From the NCBI GenBank assembly GCA_024278755.1, contig JAJRSO010000048.1, positions 1 to 64,000 of the forward strand: a stretch of 64,000 nt of DNA. The letters run 5' to 3'. The notes beneath the pieces are model-generated. The model saw only the letters and a program-made list of their open reading frames with translations, did no database searches and had not been told where the DNA came from. Positions 1,084-61,502 of the stretch are shown piece after piece. The position numbers and the translations under genes were made by a program. Each line of letters opens with the position of its first letter. Position 1 is the stretch's first letter. Source of the stretch: Calditrichota bacterium (GTDB lineage Bacteria > Calditrichota > Calditrichia > Calditrichales > Calditrichaceae).

Positions 1084-2304
1084 TTACTCTATCTTTAAAC
1101 AGGCGGCAATATCAATATTCCATTTTTCGGGCGGTTCGGTACCGGCGATTTGATGCAAGGCCCCGCTGTCTCCCGATAGATCCAGACGGGTATGCGGGAT
1201 CGCTCGGTTTTTATTTAAATCATAAACTAACTGTACAACCGGCTGCAATAAATTATCTTTGGCCGATTCCACTACAACCGCTAAAAAACCGCTGCTCAGG
1301 CGCACCAGGCTGCCAACCGGATAAATGCCGATAGACTGGATAAATTTCTGTAATAATTCGAGATCAAATTTCTCCGGTGAAGACTCGAATAAATATTTTA
1401 GTACCTCCGTGGGCGAAGATGCTTTTTGATGCGGGCGATCGGAAGTTAATGCATCGTACACATCTAATATTGAAACCATACGTCCGCCGATGCTGATATC
1501 ATGTCCTTTTAATCCGTTTGGATAGCCCGATCCATCCATACGTTCATGATGTTCATATACTACTTCAAGCATCTCCGGATCCACTTTTTCAAGTTTATTT
1601 AAAATCTCCTTTCCGTACTGCGGATGCATTTTAATCCGTTTTATCTCTTCATCCGTGTATGTTGTGGGTTTTAAAAGGATTTCATCGGGAATCCGCGTTT
1701 TACCTAAATCATGAAACAGCGCGCCGGTGGAATAAATGCGAATTTTTCCCGCGTCCATTCCCTGAAATTTACAAAAAGAGGCCATCATAACCGAGACATT
1801 GATGGAATGATTAAAAAGATATTCATCTTTATTTTGGATGGAGATCAGCGATAAAAGCGCATCACGGTTGCGGGCAATGGAACCGACCATTTCATCCACA
1901 ATTTCCGAGGCCATGTCCATATCAAACGAGGCGCCCGTCTTAACGCTCTCGGTTAATTCCTGAACAAAGGAATGCGCCTTGTGTTTTATCTCTTTTGCCT
2001 TTTCCAGTTCCTTTTCATAGGGCACCCAGGGCGAACGTTCCACCGCCAGTTTTTCTCGCAACCCATCGTTTCCGCCAAACGCTTTTTGCCAGTCTGCGAG
2101 GCTTAGCGGCGGTTTTTTAATATCCTTACCCCGGGTTGTATCGATATAAACTTCCGTAATGTCGTATCTGCGGATACGCTCAATCATCCATTCATCTTTA
2201 ATTAACTGCTTTCCCAGGATAAATGGCCGGTTAAGCCAGGTACGGCCAAAATCACAAACAAAGGCGCCCGGAATAAGATCTTCAACACTTACTTTTTTCT
2301 TCAT
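1084..2304 (-). CDS. HD-GYP domain cyclic-di-GMP phosphodiesterase (paralog 2)
   Basis: The N-terminal ~100 residues form a DUF3391-like module (VEDLIPGAFVCDFGRTWL). The rest is an HD-GYP phosphodiesterase, a family that hydrolyses cyclic di-GMP using a bi- or tri-nuclear metal centre. Visible catalytic motifs are HSINV (about 166), FHDLGK (HD at 198-199), MHPQYG (227), EHHERMDGSGYP (251-262, the GYP signature) and a following DVYDALTSDRP. There is no signal peptide or membrane segment, so it is cytosolic. It lies 27 bp downstream of a close paralog on the same strand and is probably co-transcribed. Both copies keep all catalytic residues. Unlike many HD-GYP proteins it has no receiver domain, so its input signal is unclear. 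Confidence 0.9.
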   Translation of the reverse strand: MKKKVSVEDLIPGAFVCDFGRTWLNRPFILGKQLIKDEWMIERIRRYDITEVYIDTTRGKDIKKPPLSLADWQKAFGGNDGLREKLAVERSPWVPYEKELEKAKEIKHKAHSFVQELTESVKTGASFDMDMASEIVDEMVGSIARNRDALLSLISIQNKDEYLFNHSINVSVMMASFCKFQGMDAGKIRIYSTGALFHDLGKTRIPDEILLKPTTYTDEEIKRIKMHPQYGKEILNKLEKVDPEMLEVVYEHHERMDGSGYPNGLKGHDISIGGRMVSILDVYDALTSDRPHQKASSPTEVLKYLFESSPEKFDLELLQKFIQSIGIYPVGSLVRLSSGFLAVVVESAKDNLLQPVVQLVYDLNKNRAIPHTRLDLSGDSGALHQIAGTEPPEKWNIDIAACLKIE

Positions 2305-2331: not shown

Positions 2332-3588
2332 TCATTTGTTTTCATTTTTATTGCTATTTTCAGCCGGTTCGGGTGTACCTTTCATATAATGTACAATATC
2401 AATTCCCCACTTTACGGCCGATTCGGGCCCGGAAATCTGATGTAAAGTTCCGCCCGGTGCAGCCAAATCCAGCCTGCGAGGTGAAATTTTTCTATCTCTG
2501 TTAGTGTCGTAAACTAACAGTACAACCGGTTTTGTTAGCTCTTCTTTTGCCGTTTTCACCACAATTGCTAAAAATCCGCTTTGCAGGCGAACCAGGCTTC
2601 CCACGGGATAAATACCAATGGACTGAATAAACTGCTGCACCAGAATCGCATCAAAAGCCGAAGAGGATACTTTAAACATGTAGCTCAGTACATTTTTAGG
2701 CGGATCGCCGTCATGATAGGGACGATCCGATGTGAGGGCGTCGTACACATCCGTGATAGAAACCAATCGACCGCCGAAACTTATTTGATCTTCATTCAGG
2801 CCGCGAGGATATCCGGAACCGTCCATACGTTCATGATGTTCGTAAATTACATCTAATATTCTTTGATCCGTATTGGGTTGTGCAGCAAGAATTTCCAATC
2901 CCAGCTCCGGATGGCGCTGCATCAGTTTCATATCTTCTTGGGTAAAATCGTCCGGTTTTGTAATCACTTCGATCGGGATTTTTATTTTTCCCAAATCATG
3001 AAACAGGGCGCCCAGAGCAAAGGTTTTAATATCCTCCGCGTTCATTTCCAGATAGCGGCAGAAGGCAGCGGTTATTATCGCCACATTTATTGAGTGATTA
3101 AACGTGTATTCGTCTTTGTTCTGAATGGATATCAAAGAAAGCAGGGCGTCTCCGTTTCGGGTCAGCGAATCGATCATCTCATCCACAATTTCCGCCGCAA
3201 CATCAGGATCGAAATCGCGGCCCATTTTAATATCATCAATCAGTTGTCGAATATAGTTTTGCGCCTTATCTCGTATTTCCAGCGCCTGCGCCACTTCTGT
3301 TTCGAACGGCACCCATTCCTTTCGTTTAAGCAGCAGTTTATCGCGGGCTTTCTTATTTTCAAACGCTTCCGACCATTCGTTTAGGGGGATGGGCGCCGAA
3401 AGAACATCCAAACCACGGTTTGTATCAATATAAATTTCTTTAATATTATATTCACGAATGCGCTCGATATGCCATTGGGTTGCCAGCATCTTCGAGTTAG
3501 TAATAAACGGATGATCCAGCCATTTTTTACCAAAATCATGGATAAAAACTCCCGGGCGCAGTTGTTCTGTTTTAACTTTCTTGATCAC
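2332..3588 (-). CDS. HD-GYP domain cyclic-di-GMP phosphodiesterase (paralog 1)
   Basis: This 418-aa protein has the same architecture as the next gene downstream: a DUF3391-like N-terminus (VKTEQLRPGVFIHDFGKKWL) and an HD-GYP domain with HSINV, FHDLGK, RHPELG, EHHERMDGSGYP and DVYDALTSDRP. It is predicted to linearise cyclic di-GMP in the cytosol. The two proteins align along their whole length, including the C-terminal segment after the GYP domain, so they come from a tandem duplication. The tail of this copy is longer and Lys/Asn/Glu-rich. It is the first gene of the pair. The divergent gene starts about 130 bp away, so promoters for both directions must lie in 3589-3722. Confidence 0.9.
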   Translation of the reverse strand: MIKKVKTEQLRPGVFIHDFGKKWLDHPFITNSKMLATQWHIERIREYNIKEIYIDTNRGLDVLSAPIPLNEWSEAFENKKARDKLLLKRKEWVPFETEVAQALEIRDKAQNYIRQLIDDIKMGRDFDPDVAAEIVDEMIDSLTRNGDALLSLISIQNKDEYTFNHSINVAIITAAFCRYLEMNAEDIKTFALGALFHDLGKIKIPIEVITKPDDFTQEDMKLMQRHPELGLEILAAQPNTDQRILDVIYEHHERMDGSGYPRGLNEDQISFGGRLVSITDVYDALTSDRPYHDGDPPKNVLSYMFKVSSSAFDAILVQQFIQSIGIYPVGSLVRLQSGFLAIVVKTAKEELTKPVVLLVYDTNRDRKISPRRLDLAAPGGTLHQISGPESAVKWGIDIVHYMKGTPEPAENSNKNENK

Positions 3589-8974: not shown

Positions 8975-8999
8975 TACATCCATACAGAAAGGAAAATTG

Positions 9000-9509
9000 A
9001 TGTCTGATATTTACGCAACCATTGTTACCAATAAAGGCGATATTCATCTTAAACTGTTTACAAACGAAGCGCCCTATACTACTGCTAATTTCATTAATCT
9101 GGCTAACAGAGGATATTACGATGCGTTAAAATTTCACCGTGTAATCAATGATTTTATGATCCAGGGCGGATGTCCGTTGGGTACCGGCACAGGCGGGCCC
9201 GGCTACCAGTTTGACGATGAATTTCATGCCCATCTGACCCATGATAAACCGGGTAAATTATCGATGGCCAACGCCGGACCCGGCACCAATGGCAGCCAGT
9301 TTTTCATTACCCATGTTCCGACCCCCTGGTTAGATGGCAAACATACTGTTTTTGGCGAAGTATTAAGTGAAAAGGATCAGGCCGTCGTTAACAGCATCGC
9401 ACAAAACGATCAGATTCAGTCCATAAAAATAGAAGGTGACACCAGCGCCTTGTTTGAACAAACAAAAGAAAAAGTTGACGAATGGAACGCCCGGCTGGAT
9501 AGAGCGTAA
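9000..9509 (+). CDS. Cyclophilin-type peptidyl-prolyl cis-trans isomerase
   Basis: This is a single-domain cyclophilin that catalyses cis-trans isomerisation of Xaa-Pro bonds. Diagnostic segments are [13 protein letters not shown] (catalytic Arg in the FHR motif), [10 protein letters not shown] and [12 protein letters not shown], in the right order for a prokaryotic enzyme. There is no signal peptide, so it is cytosolic. The ATG at 9000 is preferred over the in-frame TTG at 8997, because AAAGGA at 8988-8993 gives normal spacing. It starts only 25 bp after the T9SS-sorted protein gene and may be co-transcribed. The C-terminal ~25 residues ([18 protein letters not shown]) extend beyond the core fold. 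Confidence 0.93.
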
Positions 9510-9667
9510 TATAAAACTGCAAATCGTTTCCATTGTGTTAAATATAATGCGATTGAAGAATAGTTAGTTAAATCAAATCTTGTTTTTAGTTTAGTATTCA
9601 CAAAACAGCCCGTAGCTGTAATTCAGAAATCATTTGGCTTAGATACTTACAAGAGTGGGAGAAAACG

Positions 9668-10915
9668 TTGCACATGCAGCTCGTGAAACAGCCAAAAATT
9701 TCCATCCCGGAACGGCACCGGCTTGAACTTTTTTATGACCGGCACCGGCATCAGTATCAGGAAACATTAAATAAGCTATACAAAAAGATTCGTAAAATCC
9801 TGGTAAAAACGAATGTCAATTATAATATTAAATATCGGATTAAGTCGTTTGACAGCTATTTTGAAAAACTTATGCGCATGCGCCGTGAAGGAGAAGATTT
9901 TACCCTGATCAATGATCTGCTGGGCCTGCGTATTGTTCTCCCTTTTTTAGAAGATGTGGAACTGGTGCAAAGCCTTATCTCAAAAAATTTTAAAATTATC
10001 GAAATTGAGTACAAAGGCGCTAAAAATTCCTTCCGGGAATTTAGCTACGACTCTATCCATATTCTTGTGGACATTTCCGACAAACATGTTAAAGATACAA
10101 TTCCCTATATGCGTAAAGTATGCGAAATTCAGGTTCGTACCACATTACAGGACGCCTGGGCTGAAGTGGAACATGAATTAATATACAAATCAAATTTATC
10201 CATGCCCAACGATTCCATTAAACGAAAAATGGCTTCGTTAAACGCCTCTCTTACATTATCGGATATAATCTTTCAGGAAATCCGGGATTATCAAAAAGGG
10301 CTGGCGCAATGGCGTGAACAGCGTCACGATAGTTTTATCGAAAAAGTACAGAGCAACTCTCCGGTATCATTGATCAACTTAATGGAAGAGCCCCCTTTGG
10401 AAGAAAAAGAAAAAATTTCCATTATGCCCCTAAAGCCTAAAAATCGTGTGGAAAAAGATATTTTTGAAGCGTTGGAAGCCCACAGCGCCCGTAAGTATAA
10501 ACAGGCTGCGGCTATCTACTCCCGTATTTTAAAATATAAACTGGAACCACGAATAAGAGCTATTGTATATAATCACCGGGGAATGGCCTATTTTGTACAA
10601 TCCAAGTATGAAAAATCACTAAAAGATTTTAACAAGGCCATTGAGTTTGAGCCGAAAAACCCAAACGGATACAATAACCGCGGCATGGCCTACCGTATTA
10701 TTCAAAATTACGAAAAAGCGCTTTCGGATTTCGAAAAATCACTGGAACTTGACCCATACCAACACGAAACATATCACATGCGGGCTTTAACATTTTATGA
10801 TATCAACGATTTTGCCAGCGCGTTTGATAGTTGCCGGAAAACGCTGGAACTTAAACCCGATTTTAAACCGGCAGAACATTTGAAAAAAATAATTACTTCT
10901 AAGCTGGGCTATTAA
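9668..10915 (+). CDS. RelA/SpoT-type (p)ppGpp synthetase domain fused to TPR repeats
   Basis: Residues ~40-190 form a RelA/SpoT nucleotidyltransferase domain: YRIKSFDSYFEKL (Arg/Lys that bind phosphates), INDLLGLRIV (metal-binding Asp), a YDSIH segment (Tyr, Ser and His of the usual GYxSxH loop, but without the PKPNG part) and CEIQVRT plus AWAEVEHE (catalytic Glu). There is no HD hydrolase, TGS or ACT domain, so this is a small-alarmone-synthetase-like protein. Residues ~265-410 hold about four TPRs (YNHRGMAYFVQSKYEKSLKD and similar), which usually bind proteins. A TTG at 9668 is the likely start: GGGAGA lies six bases upstream. An ATG at 9674 is the alternative. The 3' end overlaps the convergent kinase gene by 17 bp. 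Pyrophosphokinase activity is expected but not certain. Confidence 0.82.
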   Translation: MHMQLVKQPKISIPERHRLELFYDRHRHQYQETLNKLYKKIRKILVKTNVNYNIKYRIKSFDSYFEKLMRMRREGEDFTLINDLLGLRIVLPFLEDVELVQSLISKNFKIIEIEYKGAKNSFREFSYDSIHILVDISDKHVKDTIPYMRKVCEIQVRTTLQDAWAEVEHELIYKSNLSMPNDSIKRKMASLNASLTLSDIIFQEIRDYQKGLAQWREQRHDSFIEKVQSNSPVSLINLMEEPPLEEKEKISIMPLKPKNRVEKDIFEALEAHSARKYKQAAAIYSRILKYKLEPRIRAIVYNHRGMAYFVQSKYEKSLKDFNKAIEFEPKNPNGYNNRGMAYRIIQNYEKALSDFEKSLELDPYQHETYHMRALTFYDINDFASAFDSCRKTLELKPDFKPAEHLKKIITSKLGY

Positions 10916-13900
10916 CAGAGAATAATTGGCTAAGTGTGCGCATTAGCGCTTCCGGAGAGAAAGGTTTTTGCAGAAAACGAATATCTCGTTTTATCATCCC
11001 GCTACGCACAATATTTTCATCGGTATATCCGGACATATAAAGCGCCTTTTGTTGCGGATTAATGGCATATATTTTTTTCATCAGTTCCACCCCATTTAAA
11101 CCAGGCATTACCACATCGCTTAAAACCAGGTCGATTGATTCTCTATTTTCTTCATACACCGATAAAGCGTCCCAGCCGTCTTTTGCCTCCAACGTAGTAT
11201 ATCCGTAAAGTTTTAACATTTTAACGATCATTTTGCGTACCGAAGCCTCGTCTTCAACAATCAGAATGGTTTGGTGCCCATGCGGATATTCCTGTACCGT
11301 ATTCTCCGTTTCTTCGGTTATTACATTTTGGTCTACCGCAGGAAGATACACAAAAAAGGTGCTTCCTTTTTTATACGCACTTTCCACCCAAATATAACCG
11401 CCGCTCTGTTTTACAATTCCAAACACCGTAGACAAACCCAGCCCGGTTCCCCTGCCCGTTTCTTTTGTTGTAAAAAAGGGATCGAATATCTTTTGTTGCA
11501 CTTCCTTCGTCATGCCAATACCGGTATCGGAAACCGATAGAGAAATAAAAATGCTGTCTCTAATTCCTTCATCAATCATCTTTAACTTTTCCGGAAGCTT
11601 TACATTTTCTGTCTTTACAACCAGATGGCCGCCCAAAGGCATTGCATCCCGGGCGTTAACCAGTAAATTTAACAAGATCTGATCCATTTGTCCCGGATCT
11701 GCAAAAATATGATCTAATCCTACGGCCAGTTCATACTTCAATTCTATATTCTCCGGAATAAGCCGGCCAAGCATTGTTTTTGTGGCATTAATCCTGGTAT
11801 TCAGATTCATCACTATTGGTTTAAGCATTTGCTTGCGGCTAAAGGCCAACAGTTGCCGTGTAAGACCCTGTGCCCGTTCACCGGCGGAATCAATTTCTTT
11901 TATGCTTTTATAAATGGTTTCATCCAGATTTTCTTCGGCCAACAATAAAAAACTATATCCCCGAATTACAGATAAAAGATTATTAAAATCATGAGCGATC
12001 CCCCCTGCCAAGTTACCGATAGCTTCCATTTTTTGTGCCTGTCGCAGTTGGTCTTCCAGTTTTACTTTTTCGGACGTATCAACCGCAATATGTAAGGTTA
12101 ATGTGGTTTCGCCGTGTTCATTCTTTAGCGGATGAATACTTACACTGTAATTTTTCTTTGAACCCATGATTTCAATTTCGGTCTCTATTTCTCTGCTTAC
12201 CCCATCCTGAATGACCTTTTTGACCCGTGCCATCAGTGGCTTTACAATATCTTCGGGGAAATATTCATAAATGGAATGGCCACTGAAATCAGCTGGTTTT
12301 CCTCCTATACGCGCTGCGGCCGTTTTATTCATAAAATGAAATATTCCGGTAGCATTAAGCGTATAAATACCATCCCCGATACCTTCCACAAGGGTGCGGT
12401 ATTTTATTTCATTTTCGGTGAGCATATGTTCAATCTGGCGCCGGATATGTATTTGGTCGTTCAGTTTTTTATTGATCGTTTCCAATTCTGCATTTCGGCG
12501 ACGGATAGAAAACACGCGCAGCCTGTATCCGGAAAAAATCAATAATAAAATGGTAAGTAAGCCCCAGATTTGGAACCACCAGGTTTGCCAGAACGGGGGC
12601 AGTATTTCGAATTCGGCTACTGCTTCATTAATGCTCCAAAGTCCCTGTGAATTTTGTCCTTTTATACGCAGTTTGTATTTGCCCGGCGGCAAAGACACAA
12701 ATGAAATGGAATGCCGGCTGCCCAAATCCTGCCATTGGCCGGTACCTCTTTCCAGCATATATTTATAGTGGCTGCGAAAAGGTGAGATAAAATCGGTGAG
12801 CGCAAATTCAAACAAAAAGCCATAGTTATTATAGGGTAATTGTAACGATTTGTTTCTGGCAAAATTTTGCTTAAATAATCCTTTCGTGTTTCTGTTGGCG
12901 TCATTTACATAAATCTCTGATTTTGAAATCATAATGGCCGGCGAACGGGCATGTAAATTAGAATCCGGTTTAAACATCGTAAACCCGTCTTTCCCACCGA
13001 AAAGCAGAGTTCCGTCTTTTGTTTTATAAGATGAATTCTGGCGGAATGAAATGGAAGCGATACCGTCTTTATAGCTAAAACTTTGCCCCTTTTGAACTTC
13101 GGGATCAAAATAAATCAGGCCGGAATTGTAACTCAACCATAAATTACCATCATTATCCGGTAAAACACATAACAGTTTTTCTCCACTAATCCCCTGCTTG
13201 TACGTAAAATGTGCGAGAGAATCGGTTTTTATATTGAGCATAAAAAGGCCGTGATTGGTAGCCATCCATAGTCTGTTCTTAGTATCTTCATATAAATCCT
13301 GAACGGATATGTGCTCTTTCTCTTCAAACCTGTAATATATTTCAAAAATATCACGTACCGGATTGTATTTTAATACTTTTGAACTTTGAATACCGGCGTA
13401 CAAGTCGCCTTTTTCGTTTTCGAAGAGATGCAACACCCGATTATGTATTTTCTTATCATTACTTGTAGCATACAATTTATAGGTTTGCGTTTGAGGATTG
13501 AAGCGCAGAATTCCGCCTTCGATTAAGCCGAACCATAAAATTCCGTTTCTATCTTTAATTCCTGTAAATACCGACAACGACCTTTTGAGCTCAGGAATTT
13601 TTTTCAACAATGGGGAAAACCTGCCGGAAACCGGATCGAAACTCAAAATTCCGTTATACAAACTTCCTAAAACAAAAAAATGCGCATTTATTTTGTGAAT
13701 TGTAGTTATCCGGTTTTTCAAATTTTTCGCAGAGAGCGGTAAATACGTATATCTTTTTATCTCTCTTGTACGGAAATTAATCTGAAGTAACCCATATCGC
13801 TTTGAAGTGGTCCATATGGTTGCCGGTTTATCTTCGACAAAACTAAAAATGCTCTCGGTAAACGAACCGCTATTTCCAAGCAGTTCATTTTGCAGATTGA

Positions 13901-14972
13901 TAAAGAGCGTGGCATTCCCCTGAAAGCGCTCAATTCCATTTTTCCGGGTTCCTATCCAGATAACACCCTGCCTGTCCTGATAAATACAATTCAAAAAGTT
14001 TTCCGATAAAGAATTCGGAGAGGCATTTGTATATCTATAATTTTCATAGGTAGCCGTTTTCGGATCAAATTTTGTCAGTCCTCCCCCTGCGTCGGATACA
14101 AGCCAGATAAAACCATTGGTATCTATCAATACATCTTTAATACTATAGCTTAGAGGATGCAGACCACGGGAAAAATCTTCGAAAATACCGGTCTTGACAT
14201 CGTATTTAATTAACCCTTCCCGCACAGAACCTATCCAAAGAGCACCATTTTTGTCCTCCCGGATTGCGTTATACTTGCTTATTTTTCTCCTTTTTATACT
14301 AATTTCCGGACGTATTTGTACAAAGCGCTCCTCCGAACGATTGTAAATCGCCAGTCCTTTATTGGTACCCAGAAATAAATTATTTTGTGAATCTTCAAAG
14401 ATATCTACTACAATATTAATAGAGAGAGAATCCCGGCCATTAATCATTTTTTTAAATATTTTTACTCCTTTTGTTTCAGGATTGTAGCACACAAGAGAAT
14501 TTGCTCCGTCAAACCAAAGGATTCCGAGATGATCTTTTATAATTTTTTTTACACTTTTTTTATTAAGAATCGCAATGTCTTCCGAAACAATTTTATCCAT
14601 GGAGGGATAATATTTTTTTACGCCCCTGTTTGTCCCCAGCCAGAAAAAACGCGCTTCATCCCAATCTTCAAGGATAGAAGAAACCACTAAACGGCCTTTT
14701 AACGTATCCTCCACCTGGATTGTTTTAAACTCATAGCCGTCAAAGCGTTCCAGGCCGGCGTCGCTTCCAAACCACATAAACCCCACACTATCCTGAATAA
14801 TGCAATTGATGCTATTGCTGGACAGACCGTCTTCTACGGTTAAGTGACGAAAATAGAGCGGAGTGTGCTGCGCCTGAAGGTTAGAAGAAAATACATAAAC
14901 AGATAGAAATAACACAAAAAGCCTGAGCGGGGATTTATATTTTTTAATTAATGAACGGACGACGTTACGCAT
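10899..14972 (-). CDS. Hybrid sensor histidine kinase with Reg_prop beta-propeller sensor and C-terminal receiver
   Basis: This is a 1357-aa membrane hybrid kinase. After a signal/TM segment come many Reg_prop (two-component regulator propeller) repeats, e.g. LWIGSVREGLIKYD and IWIGTRKNGIERF, to about residue 700. A Y_Y_Y domain follows (ending LPPGKYKLRIKGQN), then a single TM helix near 810-830 (WGLLTILLLIFSGYRLRV), PAS (about 880-990), HisKA with GGIAHDFNNLLS, HATPase (NLLVNARDAM, DTGIGM, GTGLGLSTV) and a receiver (ILIVEDE, DLVLSDVVMPG). Unlike Bacteroides hybrid systems it ends at the receiver with no AraC-type HTH, so it must pass phosphate to another protein. Its start overlaps the stop of the upstream channel gene by 8 bp, which implies translational coupling. 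It ends with TAG. Confidence 0.92.
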   Translation of the reverse strand: MRNVVRSLIKKYKSPLRLFVLFLSVYVFSSNLQAQHTPLYFRHLTVEDGLSSNSINCIIQDSVGFMWFGSDAGLERFDGYEFKTIQVEDTLKGRLVVSSILEDWDEARFFWLGTNRGVKKYYPSMDKIVSEDIAILNKKSVKKIIKDHLGILWFDGANSLVCYNPETKGVKIFKKMINGRDSLSINIVVDIFEDSQNNLFLGTNKGLAIYNRSEERFVQIRPEISIKRRKISKYNAIREDKNGALWIGSVREGLIKYDVKTGIFEDFSRGLHPLSYSIKDVLIDTNGFIWLVSDAGGGLTKFDPKTATYENYRYTNASPNSLSENFLNCIYQDRQGVIWIGTRKNGIERFQGNATLFINLQNELLGNSGSFTESIFSFVEDKPATIWTTSKRYGLLQINFRTREIKRYTYLPLSAKNLKNRITTIHKINAHFFVLGSLYNGILSFDPVSGRFSPLLKKIPELKRSLSVFTGIKDRNGILWFGLIEGGILRFNPQTQTYKLYATSNDKKIHNRVLHLFENEKGDLYAGIQSSKVLKYNPVRDIFEIYYRFEEKEHISVQDLYEDTKNRLWMATNHGLFMLNIKTDSLAHFTYKQGISGEKLLCVLPDNDGNLWLSYNSGLIYFDPEVQKGQSFSYKDGIASISFRQNSSYKTKDGTLLFGGKDGFTMFKPDSNLHARSPAIMISKSEIYVNDANRNTKGLFKQNFARNKSLQLPYNNYGFLFEFALTDFISPFRSHYKYMLERGTGQWQDLGSRHSISFVSLPPGKYKLRIKGQNSQGLWSINEAVAEFEILPPFWQTWWFQIWGLLTILLLIFSGYRLRVFSIRRRNAELETINKKLNDQIHIRRQIEHMLTENEIKYRTLVEGIGDGIYTLNATGIFHFMNKTAAARIGGKPADFSGHSIYEYFPEDIVKPLMARVKKVIQDGVSREIETEIEIMGSKKNYSVSIHPLKNEHGETTLTLHIAVDTSEKVKLEDQLRQAQKMEAIGNLAGGIAHDFNNLLSVIRGYSFLLLAEENLDETIYKSIKEIDSAGERAQGLTRQLLAFSRKQMLKPIVMNLNTRINATKTMLGRLIPENIELKYELAVGLDHIFADPGQMDQILLNLLVNARDAMPLGGHLVVKTENVKLPEKLKMIDEGIRDSIFISLSVSDTGIGMTKEVQQKIFDPFFTTKETGRGTGLGLSTVFGIVKQSGGYIWVESAYKKGSTFFVYLPAVDQNVITEETENTVQEYPHGHQTILIVEDEASVRKMIVKMLKLYGYTTLEAKDGWDALSVYEENRESIDLVLSDVVMPGLNGVELMKKIYAINPQQKALYMSGYTDENIVRSGMIKRDIRFLQKPFSPEALMRTLSQLFSVNSPA

Positions 14973-16114: not shown

Positions 16115-16504
16115 TCAGGCTTCAAAATCATTTTGTAAGTTTTCGAGAATATCGTCCCGAATGATTAGTAAAATGGCCGCCTGTGGAACAATTAAATATT
16201 TTATATTCTCAAATTCAATTTCCAGAGCGGCTTTGCGTACAAACAAGGCATAATCGCCTTCCTGCACCTGTAAAGGTAAATATCTGGGTTCAACCTGCTC
16301 CTGATTCCATGGATCGTCGCTCACATCACCCGGAGCGGGCATTGGATAACCGGGACCTACTTTTTCGATATATCCGCCCTGGATACTTTCTTTGGATTCT
16401 ACCCCCTGCGGAAGATAGAGCCCCAGAGAGGTGCGCGTGCGCGCTTCGTCCGGTTTTACTAAAACTCGATCGCCAACAACAATAATTTTACGGTTATTTT
16501 TCAT
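16115..16504 (-). CDS. GroES-like (Cpn10-family) co-chaperone, extended form
   Basis: This 129-aa protein shows the Cpn10 outline: VGDRVLVKPDE near the N-terminus, a GLYLP mobile-loop segment, then GGYIEKVGPGYP and a C-terminal hydrophobic strand (YLIVPQAAILLII). It is longer than a classical 95-residue GroES because of an insert (PGDVSDDPWNQEQVEPRYLPLQ). Such extended GroES-like proteins occur in Bacteroidetes-type genomes beside the standard groES. No groEL is adjacent, so this is probably an accessory copy. Whether it caps GroEL is unknown. It is the only gene between two intergenic stretches on the minus strand. Confidence 0.75.
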   Translation of the reverse strand: MKNNRKIIVVGDRVLVKPDEARTRTSLGLYLPQGVESKESIQGGYIEKVGPGYPMPAPGDVSDDPWNQEQVEPRYLPLQVQEGDYALFVRKAALEIEFENIKYLIVPQAAILLIIRDDILENLQNDFEA

Positions 16505-55392: not shown

Positions 55393-58044
55393 CTAATAAT
55401 TAAATCCAAGTGAGAAATAAAACGCACTTTGTTCTTCCGAAGTTCGGCCGTAAGCGATGTGCATGGGGCCAAACAGCGTTTCGACCCCAAGATTGATACC
55501 GACGCCGGAAAAGAAATCCTCGGATGAAAAAACCACAGATGGATTCTTCCAGATACCGCCAAAATCGTAACGCATAGAAATATAGCTATTTTTAAGGATG
55601 AAGTTTTTACGGTTAAAATGCAACGGTAGTTTATAGCGGTATTCCACATTCAGATTCACCAGTTGCCTTCCAAATAATTGGTTTTCGTGCAGGCCGTAAA
55701 AATCATTTAAACCGCCCAGACGGAAATTTTCGGAGAAGGGCATTGTTTTATCGCCAATCCCCACGAACAGACGCAGATGCCAGTTGTGCACACGGGCAAA
55801 ATTATAATAGGCCTCAAGATTGACCAGGGCTTTTGTGTAGGATTCCTTCGTCTCCAGTACAAAACGATTTCCCGTTTCCCATGCCCAGTGGTTATAAATT
55901 CCTTTCGTGGGGAAATCCACCCGATCCAGCCGATCGGTTAAGGCACGCACAGCGAACGTGCGCAGTTCGATGTTCTGTTCGTTGGAAAAGCGCCCGCGCA
56001 GGGTTTTATCAATAATGTTTTCATTACGCAATTCAAATACAAGCTGTCCGATGCGCCGCACCTGCCGGCCGATTCGAAAACGTACCCCGCGTCGTTCTTC
56101 ACGATAGGAGCCTTTACGCGCTTCGAGAGGGTTGATTTGCCAATTATAATAACCGTTTAAATCGTATGTAAAATTACTAAAGAAAATCTTGTCATCGCGA
56201 ATCCTGATTCCCAAATATCCGTCACGCTGACCAAACCGGCTTTGAAACATGGTTTTAATACCAAACCCAAAAATACTCTCATCCCCCATTTCCAGATAGG
56301 CCTGCGCCCCCCGCTCACTGTCATATTTCCCGCCGATGCGCAGCAGTTGCGAAGACTTTTCGATAACTTTAATAATCAAAATATTTTCGCCGCTTTCTTC
56401 TACTAAATTGGTATTTACCCGTTCATAAAGCTGCGAAGCGTACACATTCTGAATGGCTTTTTTTATCTTTTTCCAGTTAAATACAGAACCTCTCTGTTTC
56501 GAGAATTCTCGTAAAATGACAAATTTCTTTGTTTTTCTATTCCCTTTAATACGGATATTTCCAATACGTCCTTCATCAATATCAATTTTTAATAGACCCG
56601 ACTCCTCCTGCCAGTCGAGTCTTTTTATACGCATATAGGAATATCCCCGATTCCGGTAAAACTCGGTTAACTGCTTTAGATCTTTGCTCAGTATGTTACT
56701 GTTAAATAAATAATTTTGCCGGGATTTCATTAAATGTTTGAGGGTCAGCGAATCAAAAAGAGTATTTCCCGTAAATTCAATCTTCCGCAGGAGACCGAAA
56801 CAATCATTCTTCAGTCGTGCGGTACCTGCGCTGTCGATGCTTACTTCCACCCGCTGATAACGTCCGCTATCCATAAAAATCTGTAAATCCGCATCCAGTT
56901 CCTGAGTGGTCAGCATTTTTGATTTATATAAAAACAACTGTTTAAACTGTTCCCGAGAAAGCGCCTCCAAGCCGTTGGATACCACGCGGTCGATATAAAC
57001 CGGAACCGTTTCTTTGCAAGGGCAGTTTGTAATTTCCCGCTGAATTTGTTCGATCTTATCTCCGGCTGTGACCAGTCCAATTTGCATAAGATTTCCGGTC
57101 TGACTGAAATCATCGCTCAGCAAACCGGTTAAATCCGGTTTAATCAGCACATTGGCCGAAAGTTGTTCAATCTCTTTTGTCATCTGGGTCATAATAGTCG
57201 TCGCCTGATCTACGATTTCCCAGGGTACGTTGATACGATCTTTTCCGCGCAATCCCGAAGTAACATCCACCGCAATAATAATATCCATCCCTTCGGCTCG
57301 AGCCGCTTCCACCGGCAGGTTGGAACGCAGACCGCCATCCACTAAAAGTTTGTCACCAATTTGAACAGGGGAGAAAAGTAGCGGGAAAGCCATCGAGGCG
57401 TTAATACATTCCGCAAGATTGCCCTGAGACAGAACAACCTGTTTTCCACTTACCAGATCGGTAGCAATGGAACGGAAGGGAATGCGCAGATCATCAAAAT
57501 TATTACGGGTATGAAAACGCGCTTTTAAAATCAAGTCGGATAAAATACTCAGCAGCTTCTGTCCCGGTGAATATCCGCGGGGAATGAAGGGCATGCCTCT
57601 GTTAAAACGTACCGTTAAAAGATAGCGATCCTGCTCGGTTTTTTGCCCGAAAAAGAGTGTCCGGCGGCTGGCTTCATCTTTATACAGATCCTGCCATTTT
57701 ATAGTGTTCATCAGGCTTTGCAGTTCGTCGGGCGTGTAGCCGGAAGCATATAAACCGCCAATCATGCTACCGATGCTTGTACCGGCGATTAAATCGATAG
57801 GAATATTATTTTCTTCTAAGGCCTTTAGCACACCGATATGTACAACACCTCTTGAACCGCCGCCGCTTAACACCAGCCCGATTTTGGGTTTCTGCGGCAA
57901 GGAAGCGCAGGATTCAATTGTAATTTTCCCACCCGAAAATTTTACGGTTTTAGAAAATTTGCTGTCCCCAAATGCAGAACAGACAAAAAAAAGGCCGATA
58001 ATAAATATCAACTGCCATTGTATTTTTTGAGGTTTGTTTTTCAT
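55393..58044 (-). CDS. Patatin-like phospholipase with POTRA and BamA-like barrel (type Vd-like)
   Basis: This 883-aa outer-membrane protein has a signal peptide (WQLIFIIGLFFVCSAFG) and a patatin domain (about 40-330). The patatin domain has the oxyanion motif LSGGGSRGVVHIGVLKAL, nucleophile GTSIGSMIGG and catalytic Asp in DGGLRSNLPVEAA. Then come two or so POTRA-like repeats (LLRKIEFTGNTLF, IGNIRIKGNRKTKKFVI) and a BamA/Omp85 beta-barrel that ends in an aromatic residue (AFYFSLGFNY). This is the plan of PlpD-like type Vd autotransporters, in which a lipase is displayed or released at the surface. Catalytic residues are intact. The downstream DUF4175-like gene lies upstream on the same strand by 60 bp. 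Confidence 0.92.
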   Translation of the reverse strand: MKNKPQKIQWQLIFIIGLFFVCSAFGDSKFSKTVKFSGGKITIESCASLPQKPKIGLVLSGGGSRGVVHIGVLKALEENNIPIDLIAGTSIGSMIGGLYASGYTPDELQSLMNTIKWQDLYKDEASRRTLFFGQKTEQDRYLLTVRFNRGMPFIPRGYSPGQKLLSILSDLILKARFHTRNNFDDLRIPFRSIATDLVSGKQVVLSQGNLAECINASMAFPLLFSPVQIGDKLLVDGGLRSNLPVEAARAEGMDIIIAVDVTSGLRGKDRINVPWEIVDQATTIMTQMTKEIEQLSANVLIKPDLTGLLSDDFSQTGNLMQIGLVTAGDKIEQIQREITNCPCKETVPVYIDRVVSNGLEALSREQFKQLFLYKSKMLTTQELDADLQIFMDSGRYQRVEVSIDSAGTARLKNDCFGLLRKIEFTGNTLFDSLTLKHLMKSRQNYLFNSNILSKDLKQLTEFYRNRGYSYMRIKRLDWQEESGLLKIDIDEGRIGNIRIKGNRKTKKFVILREFSKQRGSVFNWKKIKKAIQNVYASQLYERVNTNLVEESGENILIIKVIEKSSQLLRIGGKYDSERGAQAYLEMGDESIFGFGIKTMFQSRFGQRDGYLGIRIRDDKIFFSNFTYDLNGYYNWQINPLEARKGSYREERRGVRFRIGRQVRRIGQLVFELRNENIIDKTLRGRFSNEQNIELRTFAVRALTDRLDRVDFPTKGIYNHWAWETGNRFVLETKESYTKALVNLEAYYNFARVHNWHLRLFVGIGDKTMPFSENFRLGGLNDFYGLHENQLFGRQLVNLNVEYRYKLPLHFNRKNFILKNSYISMRYDFGGIWKNPSVVFSSEDFFSGVGINLGVETLFGPMHIAYGRTSEEQSAFYFSLGFNY

Positions 58045-58103
58045 TGGTTATTTTATTGATTATTGTTTCCTGATTACCTGTTACTCGCTACTTGAACAAA
58101 ATA

Positions 58104-61100
58104 CTAATTTCCGGCGTCATTTGCCCGTAATAATTTTTCAAAATAGATTTCTATTAATTTTTGATAATCCCGGCTGTATCCCTGCTTTAAGGCCCGCCGC
58201 ATTGCTTCTTCGATAATTTTTTTATCCGGCACTTCGCCGCCGTCCGCTTCACTCGGATCTTTTACCCCATATTGTTTCGCCTGTTCGGCTTTTCTTTTTT
58301 TAGAATACTTTCGCTGCTCGAGAGAGCGCTGGGCGTCCAGCATCCGTGATAAAATTCGCCGCTGGCGTTCCACCGTAGTACGATCAAAGCGGCCGCGCAG
58401 CAGGTCTTTTTCCACCCGTTCCATATCTTTTCCAATCTGGCTCAATTCACCGAGAATATCTTCGCGCTTTCCGGTTTTTCCGCCAAGCTCCTGCAAAGCC
58501 TGACGCAATGCCGCCTGCCGGCCGCCCAGCCGTTTGGCCTTTGCCGCCTGTTCGCCGCTAAGCATTCCCTCGTTTCCTTGTCCCTGCATCAGATTCATCG
58601 ATTCGGAATTAAGCTGCCCCTGCTGCCCGGCCATCTGCTGCATCTGTTTCATAAATTCGTCAAATCCGGTACCGGATTGCGACTGCATCATCTGCGACAG
58701 CGCCCGGCTCATACCCAATACGCTTGCATTTAACGAGCTCATGGCCTCTCCCTGGCTGCGCAGGGCTGCATTTTTATTCCGTTCGGAAAGCTGTTGCAGA
58801 CTCTGCTGCATTTTGTTTTGCACTTGCCGCAGAGATTTGCTTATCTGAGGCTGGATAAAAAAAGTCTTTTGTGCAAGAGCAGCCGTTTTCTTTACAATTG
58901 TCTGAAAATTTCGCAACGCTTCACCCTGCGCCTTTAGAATTGAACTGAAATTATTGCCAAGGGGCGACGTCTTTTGTGTTTTCCGGGAAATCTGTTCCTC
59001 TTTAAACGAGAGTTCCAGCATACGCCTGCCGATATTGCGCATTTCTTTAGCCGTATCGTCCTTACTTTTTTGCCGCATCATTTGTTGCGCCTGCTGCATT
59101 TGTCTGCTTAAATTGTTCAATTGCCGTTGCAGTTGCTTCGAATTTTGCGCGGCCTGCGACCTCCTGCCGGTAGCTAATTGCCGCTCTATTTTCTCCATTT
59201 TTTTTCCGACTGTTCCCTTTTGCAGAGCGGAAGAGACAGAATCGGTTATCTGTTGTGTTTTAGCAAACTGTTCCAGCAACTCTTCTTTTAAAAACCGCTG
59301 TAAATCGGCGGTTAAGTTTTCCAACTGTTTTTTTTGCTGCTTCTGCATCTGGCGGGTTTGTTCGATGTTTTCATCTGATTTTGTTTTTGGAGCATCAATT
59401 TCTTTGCTTATTTTTTCCTGTTGTCGAGCCAGTTTTTCCGCTTTTTTTACAAGCCGGTCCAGGTGTTGCTCGAACTGCACGCGCTTTAACAATTCCATAG
59501 TGCGTTCGATACTTTTTTCAAAAGCCTCCTGGTTCAGCTTCAGTTTTGCCAGCGCCTGCCGGACTTCCTGTGGATTTGATTTCTGAAGTGAATCTTGCAG
59601 TTTTTGCAGCGCTTGCATCAGTTCCGGACTCAGCGTTTCACGAAACATCTCCTGTAATTTGGTATATTTTTCCAGCAACTCCGGACTTATTAAATTATTT
59701 TGTTCTAATTTTTTAACGGCTTCGTCTAATTCTTTTCGAATTTGCTCTAATTTCTTTTGCAGTTCTTTCTGTTTTTGAACGGTTTTTTCGATAGCCTGTT
59801 TTTTCTCCCAGTCCATCTTTTCGGCCCGCTTCATCTGCCGGTCTATTTTTTCCAAATCCTTTTTTAGTTTTCCACTCTCTTCGCGCACCTCGTCCAGAGC
59901 GCTTATCTCCCGCTGCTGTTGTTTATCCATAGATTCAAACAATTCTTCAATGGACGGAAATCGTATACTGTATATTTTGCTGCGCGCAGAAGAACCGCCG
60001 TTAAGGGTATTATTATCCACAGCACGGGCAAAATATTTTAAGGTGTCGCCAAAGGTAAGCGGCAGTTTGTTAAAATCCAGCAGATAGGCGCTCTGCCCGT
60101 TACGACCCTTAATATTTTTCATAGGCAACGAAATTTTTATAGTATCGCTTTTTGAAGGCTGTTCATTAACAATCATATAATGCAAACTTAAAGCCCTTAT
60201 TCCAAAATCATCTTCCGCCTCAATTTTTAATGCCAGATTGCCGTCAATGGGACTTTCCACATCAATTCCCGGTTCCGTTACATCCACAAACGGGGCGTTG
60301 TCTTCGGCGACGGCAATCCGGTAAGAAATTGGGTTTTGATTGCTAATGCCGCTGGTATCTTCCAAAATAATTTGGTAGGAATCGTTTTGATTAACGGTAA
60401 AAACACCGTCTAACTGTTCCCTCCGTAAACGCAACGGCAGTTTTTTCCCGGAAGCAAACAGCAATTGCCCGGCACGTACGGTTTTATTTAGTTTGATTTC
60501 GATATTTACCCGGCTGCCGCGCAGCGCGCTCACATCGCCGATGTTCCGCTCCTGCTGAAACTCGGATAGCCCGGTGTAAAGAGGCGGCTGAACACGAATA
60601 TCCAGTTGCTCTACCCGCGGCGGTATCAAAACAACTACTTTAAATTCTTCGGATAAAAGGCGCCCGGAATAGGTTTCGGTAACCGGAATCCCGCTTAACC
60701 GGTATATGAAACCCGATCGTATATCGTTTAGTGTTAACCTGTAAAAACCTTCTTGTTTTTGTAATGGCATTTGCTGTTTTTCTTCGCCCGTTTGCCGAAT
60801 CAGAAAGCAGCCTTCCAGCAAAGGCCCCGAATAAAACGCTTTTATTGTAAGCGGCGAACCTTTTAGTAGTTTGATGTTTCCGGGTTCTACACTAAAATTA
60901 TACGCCGGTATTTGTAAATATTCGTTGGTTGGATTTAGTAAACGTAACCCGGAATGACCAAGCGTTTCCCACTGAATAGCCGTTAAAAGAATAAGCGCGG
61001 TAAAAACCGGCACCAATAGTTTGGTTGGTGGAAGAAAAGATTGCAATGACAGGCGGGCGGCAAAATCTTCCTGTATATAGGCCGATAAAATATGATCGAT

Positions 61101-61502
61101 TGCCGCCTGTCGTAACGCATCCGAGCCGGCCGTTTTACCTTTTTCTTCGGTAATCAACTGGCAGGCAATTATAAACGCATCGCCGGTTTCCGGATAATAG
61201 CGCGCGGTCTCCTTTGCATCCGTAATCAGGCGCAACGCTTTATTATCACGAAAGTAACGTAAAAAGGGTTTTACCAATAAAAGATAAGCGGCTGCGCCAA
61301 AAATCAGCGCATTAATCAGCAATAATCCCCAGCGGCTGGTTTCGGAAAAAGAGAACACCTGATCGGCCAGAGCCGCACTCATCCAGACAGAAAGAATCAG
61401 CATGATAAAATGGATCGCCGCTCCCATCGCCTGCAGGCGCCGTTTCTTTTTGGAAAAGCGAGAGATATTATTTAAAAAGGATTGCTGTTTTTGATTTATC
61501 AT
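58104..61502 (-). CDS. DUF4175-like membrane protein with long coiled-coil region
   Basis: This is a 1132-aa protein with two to three TM helices near the N-terminus (IHFIMLILSVWMSAALADQ, LLLINALIFGAAAYLLLV, about 25-80) and another at ~165-180. A beta-rich periplasmic-looking segment (about 190-500) follows. It ends in a very long Gln/Lys/Glu-rich coiled coil (about 515-1130: KKQKELQKKLEQIRKELDE and repeated QQ tracts). This matches DUF4175-like proteins, whose function is not known. Its start overlaps the stop of the DUF4159-like gene by four bases (ATGA). The Gln-rich coil suggests a structural or scaffold role in the envelope; this is inference. Confidence 0.75.
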   Translation of the reverse strand: MINQKQQSFLNNISRFSKKKRRLQAMGAAIHFIMLILSVWMSAALADQVFSFSETSRWGLLLINALIFGAAAYLLLVKPFLRYFRDNKALRLITDAKETARYYPETGDAFIIACQLITEEKGKTAGSDALRQAAIDHILSAYIQEDFAARLSLQSFLPPTKLLVPVFTALILLTAIQWETLGHSGLRLLNPTNEYLQIPAYNFSVEPGNIKLLKGSPLTIKAFYSGPLLEGCFLIRQTGEEKQQMPLQKQEGFYRLTLNDIRSGFIYRLSGIPVTETYSGRLLSEEFKVVVLIPPRVEQLDIRVQPPLYTGLSEFQQERNIGDVSALRGSRVNIEIKLNKTVRAGQLLFASGKKLPLRLRREQLDGVFTVNQNDSYQIILEDTSGISNQNPISYRIAVAEDNAPFVDVTEPGIDVESPIDGNLALKIEAEDDFGIRALSLHYMIVNEQPSKSDTIKISLPMKNIKGRNGQSAYLLDFNKLPLTFGDTLKYFARAVDNNTLNGGSSARSKIYSIRFPSIEELFESMDKQQQREISALDEVREESGKLKKDLEKIDRQMKRAEKMDWEKKQAIEKTVQKQKELQKKLEQIRKELDEAVKKLEQNNLISPELLEKYTKLQEMFRETLSPELMQALQKLQDSLQKSNPQEVRQALAKLKLNQEAFEKSIERTMELLKRVQFEQHLDRLVKKAEKLARQQEKISKEIDAPKTKSDENIEQTRQMQKQQKKQLENLTADLQRFLKEELLEQFAKTQQITDSVSSALQKGTVGKKMEKIERQLATGRRSQAAQNSKQLQRQLNNLSRQMQQAQQMMRQKSKDDTAKEMRNIGRRMLELSFKEEQISRKTQKTSPLGNNFSSILKAQGEALRNFQTIVKKTAALAQKTFFIQPQISKSLRQVQNKMQQSLQQLSERNKNAALRSQGEAMSSLNASVLGMSRALSQMMQSQSGTGFDEFMKQMQQMAGQQGQLNSESMNLMQGQGNEGMLSGEQAAKAKRLGGRQAALRQALQELGGKTGKREDILGELSQIGKDMERVEKDLLRGRFDRTTVERQRRILSRMLDAQRSLEQRKYSKKRKAEQAKQYGVKDPSEADGGEVPDKKIIEEAMRRALKQGYSRDYQKLIEIYFEKLLRANDAGN

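What the first reader, a model, noticed from the sequence alone, without database searches (positions are those of the whole stretch)
9668..10915. RelA/SpoT synthetase domain fused to TPR repeats, without a hydrolase domain
Catalytic signatures are present, but the guanine-binding loop is shortened to FSYDSIH, and TPRs replace the usual C-terminal domains. This is uncommon among small alarmone synthetases. The TPRs could tie activity to a protein partner, or the enzyme could be a toxin-like synthetase or use a different nucleotide.
Basis: partly seen in the sequence, partly recalled or inferred. Interest (0 to 1): 0.5.

Follow-up and report, generated by a model that had tools for sequence, protein, structure and literature searches.

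The report
Known TPR-fused small alarmone synthetase
This gene encodes a stress-signal (ppGpp) synthase with a protein-binding tail, an ordinary member of an already described enzyme family found in spirochetes and sulfur- and metal-cycling bacteria, here carried by a poorly studied phylum.

Summary
The gene is real: a 415-aa protein (window 9668-10915, +) with a RelA/SpoT synthetase domain, no hydrolase domain, a flexible linker and four C-terminal TPRs plus a final helix. It belongs to a known family, DsRel or 'SAS-TPR'. The one characterised member, Tde-SAS of Treponema denticola (410 aa), makes mainly ppGpp, and its TPR domain brakes catalysis (PMC10434055). In my tree the window protein falls in a 45-row clade with SAS-TPR proteins of Desulfuromonadales, spirochetes, Hydrogenedentes and KSB1 (support 99/98), apart from RelP/RelQ, long Rel and CapRelSJ46. 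The guanine loop is not shortened: catalytic Asp to loop Tyr is 44 residues, as in RelP, RelQ and long Rel. Core catalytic residues are kept, and the predicted catalytic fold is nearest RelQ/RelP, with toxSAS structures lower. No antitoxin-like neighbour was seen, and the genome also has a full-length Rel with an HD domain. A toxin-like or different-nucleotide reading has little support, though some unnamed plasmid and phage synthetases are closer in sequence than RelP/RelQ. New here: the family in Calditrichota, and a TPR2 groove conserved across phyla that may bind an unknown partner. Ordinary; low interest.

The parts
9668..10915 (+). SAS-TPR (DsRel-type) gene, 415 aa, TTG start, stop included
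   Evidence: Open frame; Pfam RelA_SpoT plus TPR; full-length alignment with 12 orthologs from Calditrichota genomes
9836..10195 (+). RelA/SpoT synthetase domain, residues 57-176
   Evidence: PF04607, 74.7 bits; predicted fold nearest RelQ/RelP, Z 16.5-18.5
9914..9931 (+). DLLGLR motif, residues 83-88 (catalytic Asp D83)
   Evidence: D83 and R88 invariant in 36 of 36
10037..10060 (+). Guanine-binding loop EFSYDSIH, residues 124-131; normal length
   Evidence: E124, F125, Y127, H131 invariant in 36 of 36; Asp-to-Tyr spacing 44 as in RelP, RelQ and long Rel
10124..10141 (+). EIQVRT motif, residues 153-158 (catalytic Glu E153)
   Evidence: E153, Q155, R157, T158 invariant in 36 of 36
10211..10357 (+). 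Long helix after the catalytic core, residues 182-230; its first part (182-215) is the most conserved of the regions compared
   Evidence: Mean column entropy 0.93 bits for 182-215 against 1.53 for 57-176
10358..10444 (+). Variable, probably flexible linker, residues 231-259
   Evidence: pLDDT under 50 for residues 231-251; entropy 3.26
10451..10912 (+). Four TPRs (about 262-294, 298-331, 332-365, 366-399) and C-terminal helix (400-414)
   Evidence: Pfam TPR in 36 of 36 members scanned; predicted helix pairs; fold match to CTPR, MamA and OGT TPRs, Z 19-23
10574..10594 (+). Conserved TPR2 helix A segment HRGMAYF, residues 303-309
   Evidence: H303, R304, G305 in 36 of 36, M306 in 35, F309 in 34; concave positions nearly as conserved as the TPR core

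Best explanation
A small alarmone synthetase of the DsRel (SAS-TPR) family. The N-terminal domain transfers pyrophosphate from ATP to the 3'-OH of a guanine nucleotide, most likely GDP, giving ppGpp. The C-terminal TPR domain, on a flexible linker, holds this activity low and probably senses a protein partner whose binding relieves the brake. The alarmone is probably removed by the genome's bifunctional long Rel, which has an HD hydrolase domain. Shown here: family membership, intact catalytic residues, normal loop length, four TPRs, and a long Rel in the same genome. Inferred from the T. denticola relative: product, brake, tetramer. Speculative: the partner and its signal.
For: Tree: a 45-row clade with SAS-TPR proteins of Desulfuromonadales, spirochetes and others, 99/98 of 70 rows, and the same split, 24 of 43 rows, at 98/97. 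37% identity over 380 aa, TPRs included, to a 410-aa protein from a 2.8-Mb genome of the Treponema family that has no other RelA_SpoT match. Length, architecture and absence of long Rel fit Tde-SAS as published (PMC10434055: abstract, section 8, section 13 part 1 and passages); the tool does not name the genome, so the identity is my inference. 36 of 36 members scanned carry TPRs. Catalytic residues invariant in those 36. Loop spacing normal. A profile of 13 Calditrichota catalytic domains scores RelP 64-77 bits, RelQ 59-65, CapRel 34 and long Rel at most 24 among solved chains. Fold: RelQ/RelP Z 16.5-18.5, long RSH proteins 9.4-14.2, CapRel 11.7-12.9, Tas1 11.5, FaRel2 7.9-8.4. Long Rel with HD, synthetase, TGS and ACT in the same genome.
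Against: No biochemistry on this protein or, to my knowledge, on any Calditrichota member. The family has one characterised protein, at 37% identity. In my reference set (itself picked by similarity to the window) the closest sequences outside the family are unnamed phage and plasmid SAS (98-82 bits), ahead of RelQ and RelP (about 60), and F-G-Y in the guanine loop is shared with three such proteins, not with RelP/RelQ, which have (N/S)-G-Y. PADLOC's candidate defence model PDC-S33 matches residues 23-165 at E 6e-16. The window has F-S-Y, so nucleotide preference could differ in degree. Interdomain arrangement is undefined (pTM 0.50), so a docked, braking TPR is not shown.
Confidence: 0.87

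Rival explanations
1. [quoted passage not shown]
For: Synthetase with a C-terminal inhibitory domain resembles the CapRel layout. PADLOC's candidate defence model PDC-S33 matches residues 23-165 (56.8 bits, E 6e-16). The closest non-family sequences in my set are unnamed phage and plasmid SAS, some of which may be toxSAS, and three share F-G-Y in the loop. Forcing the window with CapRelSJ46 alone into a two-row clade was not rejected at 0.05 (p-AU 0.057).
Against: Apart from CapRelSJ46 in both trees, and in a supported clade of its own family. Best structural matches are RelQ/RelP, with FaRel2 far lower. No room for an antitoxin gene in the 158-base upstream gap, a convergent gene downstream, and no neighbour family shared across phyla except large superfamilies (frames under 90 aa in relatives not looked at). 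Near-universal presence in the family of a Treponema genome, 133 of 145. The characterised relative restored growth of an E. coli strain without toxic effects and made ppApp about 160- to 360-fold more slowly than ppGpp (PMC10434055).
Confidence: 0.06
2. A TPR-regulated synthetase with a shifted acceptor preference (pGpp, ppApp or another 3'-diphosphate nucleotide) caused by the EFSY loop.
For: Ser in place of Gly before the loop Tyr occurs in Calditrichaceae relatives and few others (7 of 71 measured have Ser or Ala).
Against: The loop Tyr, the loop length and the other core residues are unchanged. Tde-SAS, whose inferred sequence has FGY, makes mainly ppGpp (PMC10434055).
Confidence: 0.06
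3. A degenerate or inactive synthetase kept for its TPR adaptor function.
For: The genome has a long Rel that could supply all alarmone.
Against: The catalytic residues are invariant in 36 of 36 and the catalytic core is at least as conserved as any TPR.
Confidence: 0.02

Closest known systems
DsRel / SAS-TPR family; Tde-SAS (TDE1711) of Treponema denticola, PMC10434055
   Same: Length (415 v 410 aa), N-terminal synthetase without HD, four C-terminal TPRs plus a final helix, intact catalytic motifs, EF(G/S)Y(D/E)S loop, same clade
   Different: 37% identity to the inferred Tde-SAS; here a full-length Rel is also present, which T. denticola lacks; loop Gly replaced by Ser; phylum Calditrichota, which I did not see named for this family in the parts read
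RelQ and RelP (SAS1/YjbM, SAS2/YwaC)
   Same: Catalytic fold (Z 16.5-18.5), catalytic residues, loop spacing
   Different: No TPR; (N/S)-G-Y loop; separate clade
CapRelSJ46 and other toxSAS
   Same: Shared synthetase fold and a C-terminal regulatory part
   Different: TPR instead of an antitoxin domain; only 26% identity over 122 aa to CapRelSJ46; no TA operon seen

Membership tests
DsRel (SAS-TPR) | Synthetase domain without HD hydrolase domain | tested here: met
   Pfam: RelA_SpoT and TPR-type families only
DsRel (SAS-TPR) | C-terminal TPR domain of about 180 aa, four repeats | tested here: met
   Pfam; predicted four helix pairs plus a final helix; TPR in 36 of 36 members scanned
DsRel (SAS-TPR) | Falls in one clade with spirochete and deltaproteobacterial SAS-TPR proteins | tested here: met
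   45-row clade 99/98; 24-row split 98/97
DsRel (SAS-TPR) | Catalytic (Syn) motifs intact | tested here: met
   R57, K59, K67, D83, Y127, H131, E153, Q155, R157 invariant in 36 of 36; that these are the catalytic residues is recalled from RelSeq work
DsRel (SAS-TPR) | Makes mainly ppGpp; TPR acts as brake; homotetramer | not testable with these tools
   Known to me only for Tde-SAS (PMC10434055)
toxSAS (toxin-antitoxin SAS) | Adjacent or fused antitoxin | tested here: not met
   Adjacent: 158-base gap upstream after a cyclophilin gene, convergent histidine kinase downstream. In relatives no neighbour family shared across phyla except large superfamilies, 77 of 81 loci examined, frames of 90 aa or more only. 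A TPR acting as fused antitoxin cannot be excluded by sequence
toxSAS (toxin-antitoxin SAS) | Groups with named toxSAS in a tree | tested here: inconclusive
   Only CapRelSJ46 was a named toxSAS in the trees, and its branch is very long; separate from the window in both, but p-AU 0.057 for forcing them together
toxSAS (toxin-antitoxin SAS) | Toxic on expression | not testable with these tools
   Needs an expression test
RelP/RelQ | Falls in the RelP/RelQ clade, synthetase only | tested here: not met
   RelP/RelQ-type rows form their own 11-row clade, 99/89; the window has TPRs

The most novel reading that the evidence does not exclude
SAS-TPR proteins are partner-gated alarmone synthetases. 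The concave face of TPR2 and neighbouring TPR3 (H303, R304, M306, F309, R343) binds one conserved protein or peptide across spirochetes, Desulfuromonadales and Calditrichota, and the unusually conserved helix 182-215 passes that signal to the active site. They would form a second ppGpp channel beside long Rel that reads something other than ribosome stalling.
Probability: 0.3. Interest if true: 0.45.

Novelty: new member of a known kind. Interest (0 to 1): 0.15.

Why it matters
It extends a described but barely studied alarmone synthetase family to Calditrichota and indicates that TPR fusion is the family's standing architecture, not an oddity. The cross-phylum conservation of one TPR groove and of the helix leading to the linker gives specific residues with which to look for the unknown signal that relieves the brake.

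Tried and rejected
Rejected: 'shortened guanine loop' (spacing as in RelP, RelQ and long Rel); 'uncommon'; a TA operon. A conserved partner gene next door: among 499 neighbouring frames of 90 aa or more from 77 of 81 loci (L044, L065, L071, L074 dropped by the script), I looked at the 25 largest clusters. They are clade-local (SprT-like and cobalt-transport genes in some Desulfuromonadales-type loci, an SDR in others, an amidase in Treponema) or large superfamilies (ABC ATPase 15 of 77 loci, response regulators 13 of 77, a TrkA-type protein 4 of 77) (names other than by Pfam are my reading of the sequences). The upstream cyclophilin is shared with only two other Calditrichaceae loci (3 of 77). 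Promoter-like sites around the gene were about as frequent as in shuffles (7 v mean 6.0); terminator-like sites (5 v mean 1.9) all lie inside the coding region; no Rfam family reached its cut-off in the window. Whole-protein fold search was filled mainly by TPR rows, so the catalytic domain was folded alone. AlphaFold gave no trustworthy domain arrangement (pTM 0.50), so TPR docking could not be examined.

Limits: FaRel, FaRel2, PhRel and PhRel2 sequences were not in my trees. RelQ rows are named from operon context (NAD kinase, RluA) and similarity to PDB chains, RelP-type rows from similarity to YwaC; the other plasmid and phage SAS references are of unnamed families, and by sequence several are closer to the window than RelP/RelQ. 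That the DsRel name comes from Jimmy et al. 2020 is recalled; that paper is not held and I did not see it. Forcing window plus CapRelSJ46 into a clade gave p-AU 0.057, which does not reject it at 0.05; CapRel's very long branch makes this weak. I dropped L171 and L173 (fragments) from both trees, and L124, L019 and the long Rel rows from the second.

Full report
The observation. The window holds an open frame of 415 aa at 9668-10915 (+), with a TTG start and GGGAG at 9657-9661, 6 nt upstream. Pfam finds RelA_SpoT at residues 57-176 (74.7 bits, cut-off 27) and TPR families towards the C-terminus, and no HD domain.

What is wrong in it. The guanine-binding loop is not shortened. From the Asp of DxxGxR to the loop Tyr there are 44 residues in the window protein, and the same 44 in the five RelQ and four RelP-type references and in both long Rel proteins measured; three unnamed SAS references have 45 or 46. 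In the family 69 of 71 measurable members (of 80) have 44 and two have 45. FSYDSIH is a variant of the family's FGYDSVH; 7 of those 71 have Ser or Ala where the rest have Gly. The residues R57, K59, K67, D83, Y127, H131, E153, Q155 and R157 are invariant in the 36 aligned members (their catalytic roles are recalled from RelSeq and RelQ work).

What it is. Relatives with the same architecture are common. In the window's phylum 13 of 40 genomes, its own included, have a full-length copy, and one more has a fragment at a contig end. In the family of a Treponema genome (145 genomes drawn from a larger group) 142 match the catalytic profile at E <= 0.001, and by my count of the listing 133 at E <= 7e-56. 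All 36 members that I chose for a Pfam scan carry TPRs (26, 6, 3, and the window). This is the DsRel or SAS-TPR family described in PMC10434055 (abstract, section 8, section 13 part 1 and passages read).

Placement. A maximum-likelihood tree of 70 catalytic domains puts the window in a 45-row clade with these proteins at 99/98, apart from RelP/RelQ, long Rel, CapRelSJ46 and assorted plasmid and phage SAS. A second tree of 43 rows, without long Rel, gives the same split at 98/97. Against: in my reference set, which was picked by similarity to the window, unnamed phage and plasmid SAS score higher against the window (98-82 bits for the best, including a second SAS of another Calditrichaceae genome) than RelQ and RelP (about 60), and three of them share F-G-Y in the loop. 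PADLOC's candidate defence model PDC-S33 matches residues 23-165 at E 6e-16. Forcing the window and CapRelSJ46 together was not rejected (p-AU 0.057), and other toxSAS families were not in the trees as named rows.

Structure. The full-length model (mean pLDDT 85.3, pTM 0.50) has a catalytic domain, a long helix, a linker with pLDDT under 50 at 231-251, and four TPR helix pairs with a final helix. The TPR part matches designed TPRs, MamA and OGT. The catalytic domain folded alone (pLDDT 86.9, pTM 0.82) is nearest RelQ and RelP (Z 16.5-18.5), then long RSH proteins (9.4-14.2), CapRel (11.7-12.9), an exported SAS (12.0), Tas1 (11.5) and FaRel2 (7.9-8.4). A profile search of PDB sequences ranks RelP and RelQ first, then CapRel, then long Rel.

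Surroundings. Upstream on the same strand is a cyclophilin (8997-9509); downstream and convergent is a hybrid histidine kinase (10899-14972, -), whose stop end overlaps the gene's end by 17 bases. No antitoxin-like neighbour was seen: the upstream gap is 158 bases. In the 77 of 81 loci examined, no neighbour family (frames of 90 aa or more, 25 largest clusters) is shared across phyla except large superfamilies. The genome has one other RelA_SpoT protein, a 734-aa Rel with HD, synthetase, TGS, RIS and ACT domains. Each of 6 other SAS-TPR genomes that I searched also has a long-Rel-type match (frames of 610-775 aa; HD not checked), and all 40 genomes of the phylum set have a RelA_SpoT match.

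How it works. In Tde-SAS the synthetase prefers GDP and makes ppGpp; removing the TPR domain raises catalytic efficiency for ppGpp about 18-fold, and ppApp is made about 160- to 360-fold more slowly than ppGpp (PMC10434055). I infer the same for the window protein: a ppGpp synthetase held low by its TPR domain, beside a bifunctional Rel that can degrade the product. In what I read, nothing is known of what lifts the brake. Conservation gives a lead: H303, R304 and G305 of TPR2 are in 36 of 36 members, M306 in 35 and F309 in 34. The concave TPR2 positions (mean entropy 0.90) are nearly as conserved as its structural core (0.74); for TPR1, TPR3 and TPR4 the concave means are 1.88, 1.57 and 2.12. 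Of 20000 random sets of four TPR positions 418 are as conserved, a modest result that I looked at after seeing the alignment. Helix 182-215 is more conserved than the catalytic core (0.93 against 1.53).

Literature. The searches 'alarmone synthetase' + 'tetratricopeptide', 'DsRel' and 'TPR domain' with synthetase terms (first 10 of 1,290 listed) gave one relevant paper, PMC10434055. 'Caldithrix' + 'ppGpp' gave none. Atkinson 2011 (PMC3153485, passages) lists a divRel for T. denticola, divRel being its group of unplaced sequences.

Verdict. An ordinary member of a known family, in a phylum for which I found no mention of it in those searches.

Noticed in passing
window 1084-2304 and 2332-3588 (-): Two adjacent proteins with the same DUF3391 + HD_5 layout (HD-GYP-like, probably c-di-GMP phosphodiesterases), perhaps a tandem duplication.
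   Followed up: no
window 10899-14972 (-): 1357-aa hybrid sensor: two-component propeller, Y_Y_Y, PAS, HisKA, HATPase and receiver domain in one protein.
   Followed up: no
window 16115-16504 (-): 129-aa protein whose first part matches only the first half of Cpn10 (profile 1-47 of 93).
   Followed up: no
window 58104-61502 (-): 1132-aa DUF4175 protein; the block 58001-60000 has the strongest AT skew of the window (-0.327).
   Followed up: no
L023 (G001, 1450-2541): A second, TPR-free SAS of 363 aa in a Calditrichaceae genome, 33% identical over 184 aa to the window's catalytic domain, on a long branch among unnamed plasmid and phage SAS.
   Followed up: partly
G156 and G161 (family of a Treponema genome): In two genomes the match to the catalytic profile splits in two within one open frame of 461-470 aa, as if there were an insertion between the guanine loop and the next motif.
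   Followed up: no
L113 (Mycobacterium phage prophi68-1, gene 42): Prophage-encoded 339-aa synthetase without a Pfam TPR hit, the best phage match to the window's catalytic domain (31% over 207 aa).
   Followed up: partly
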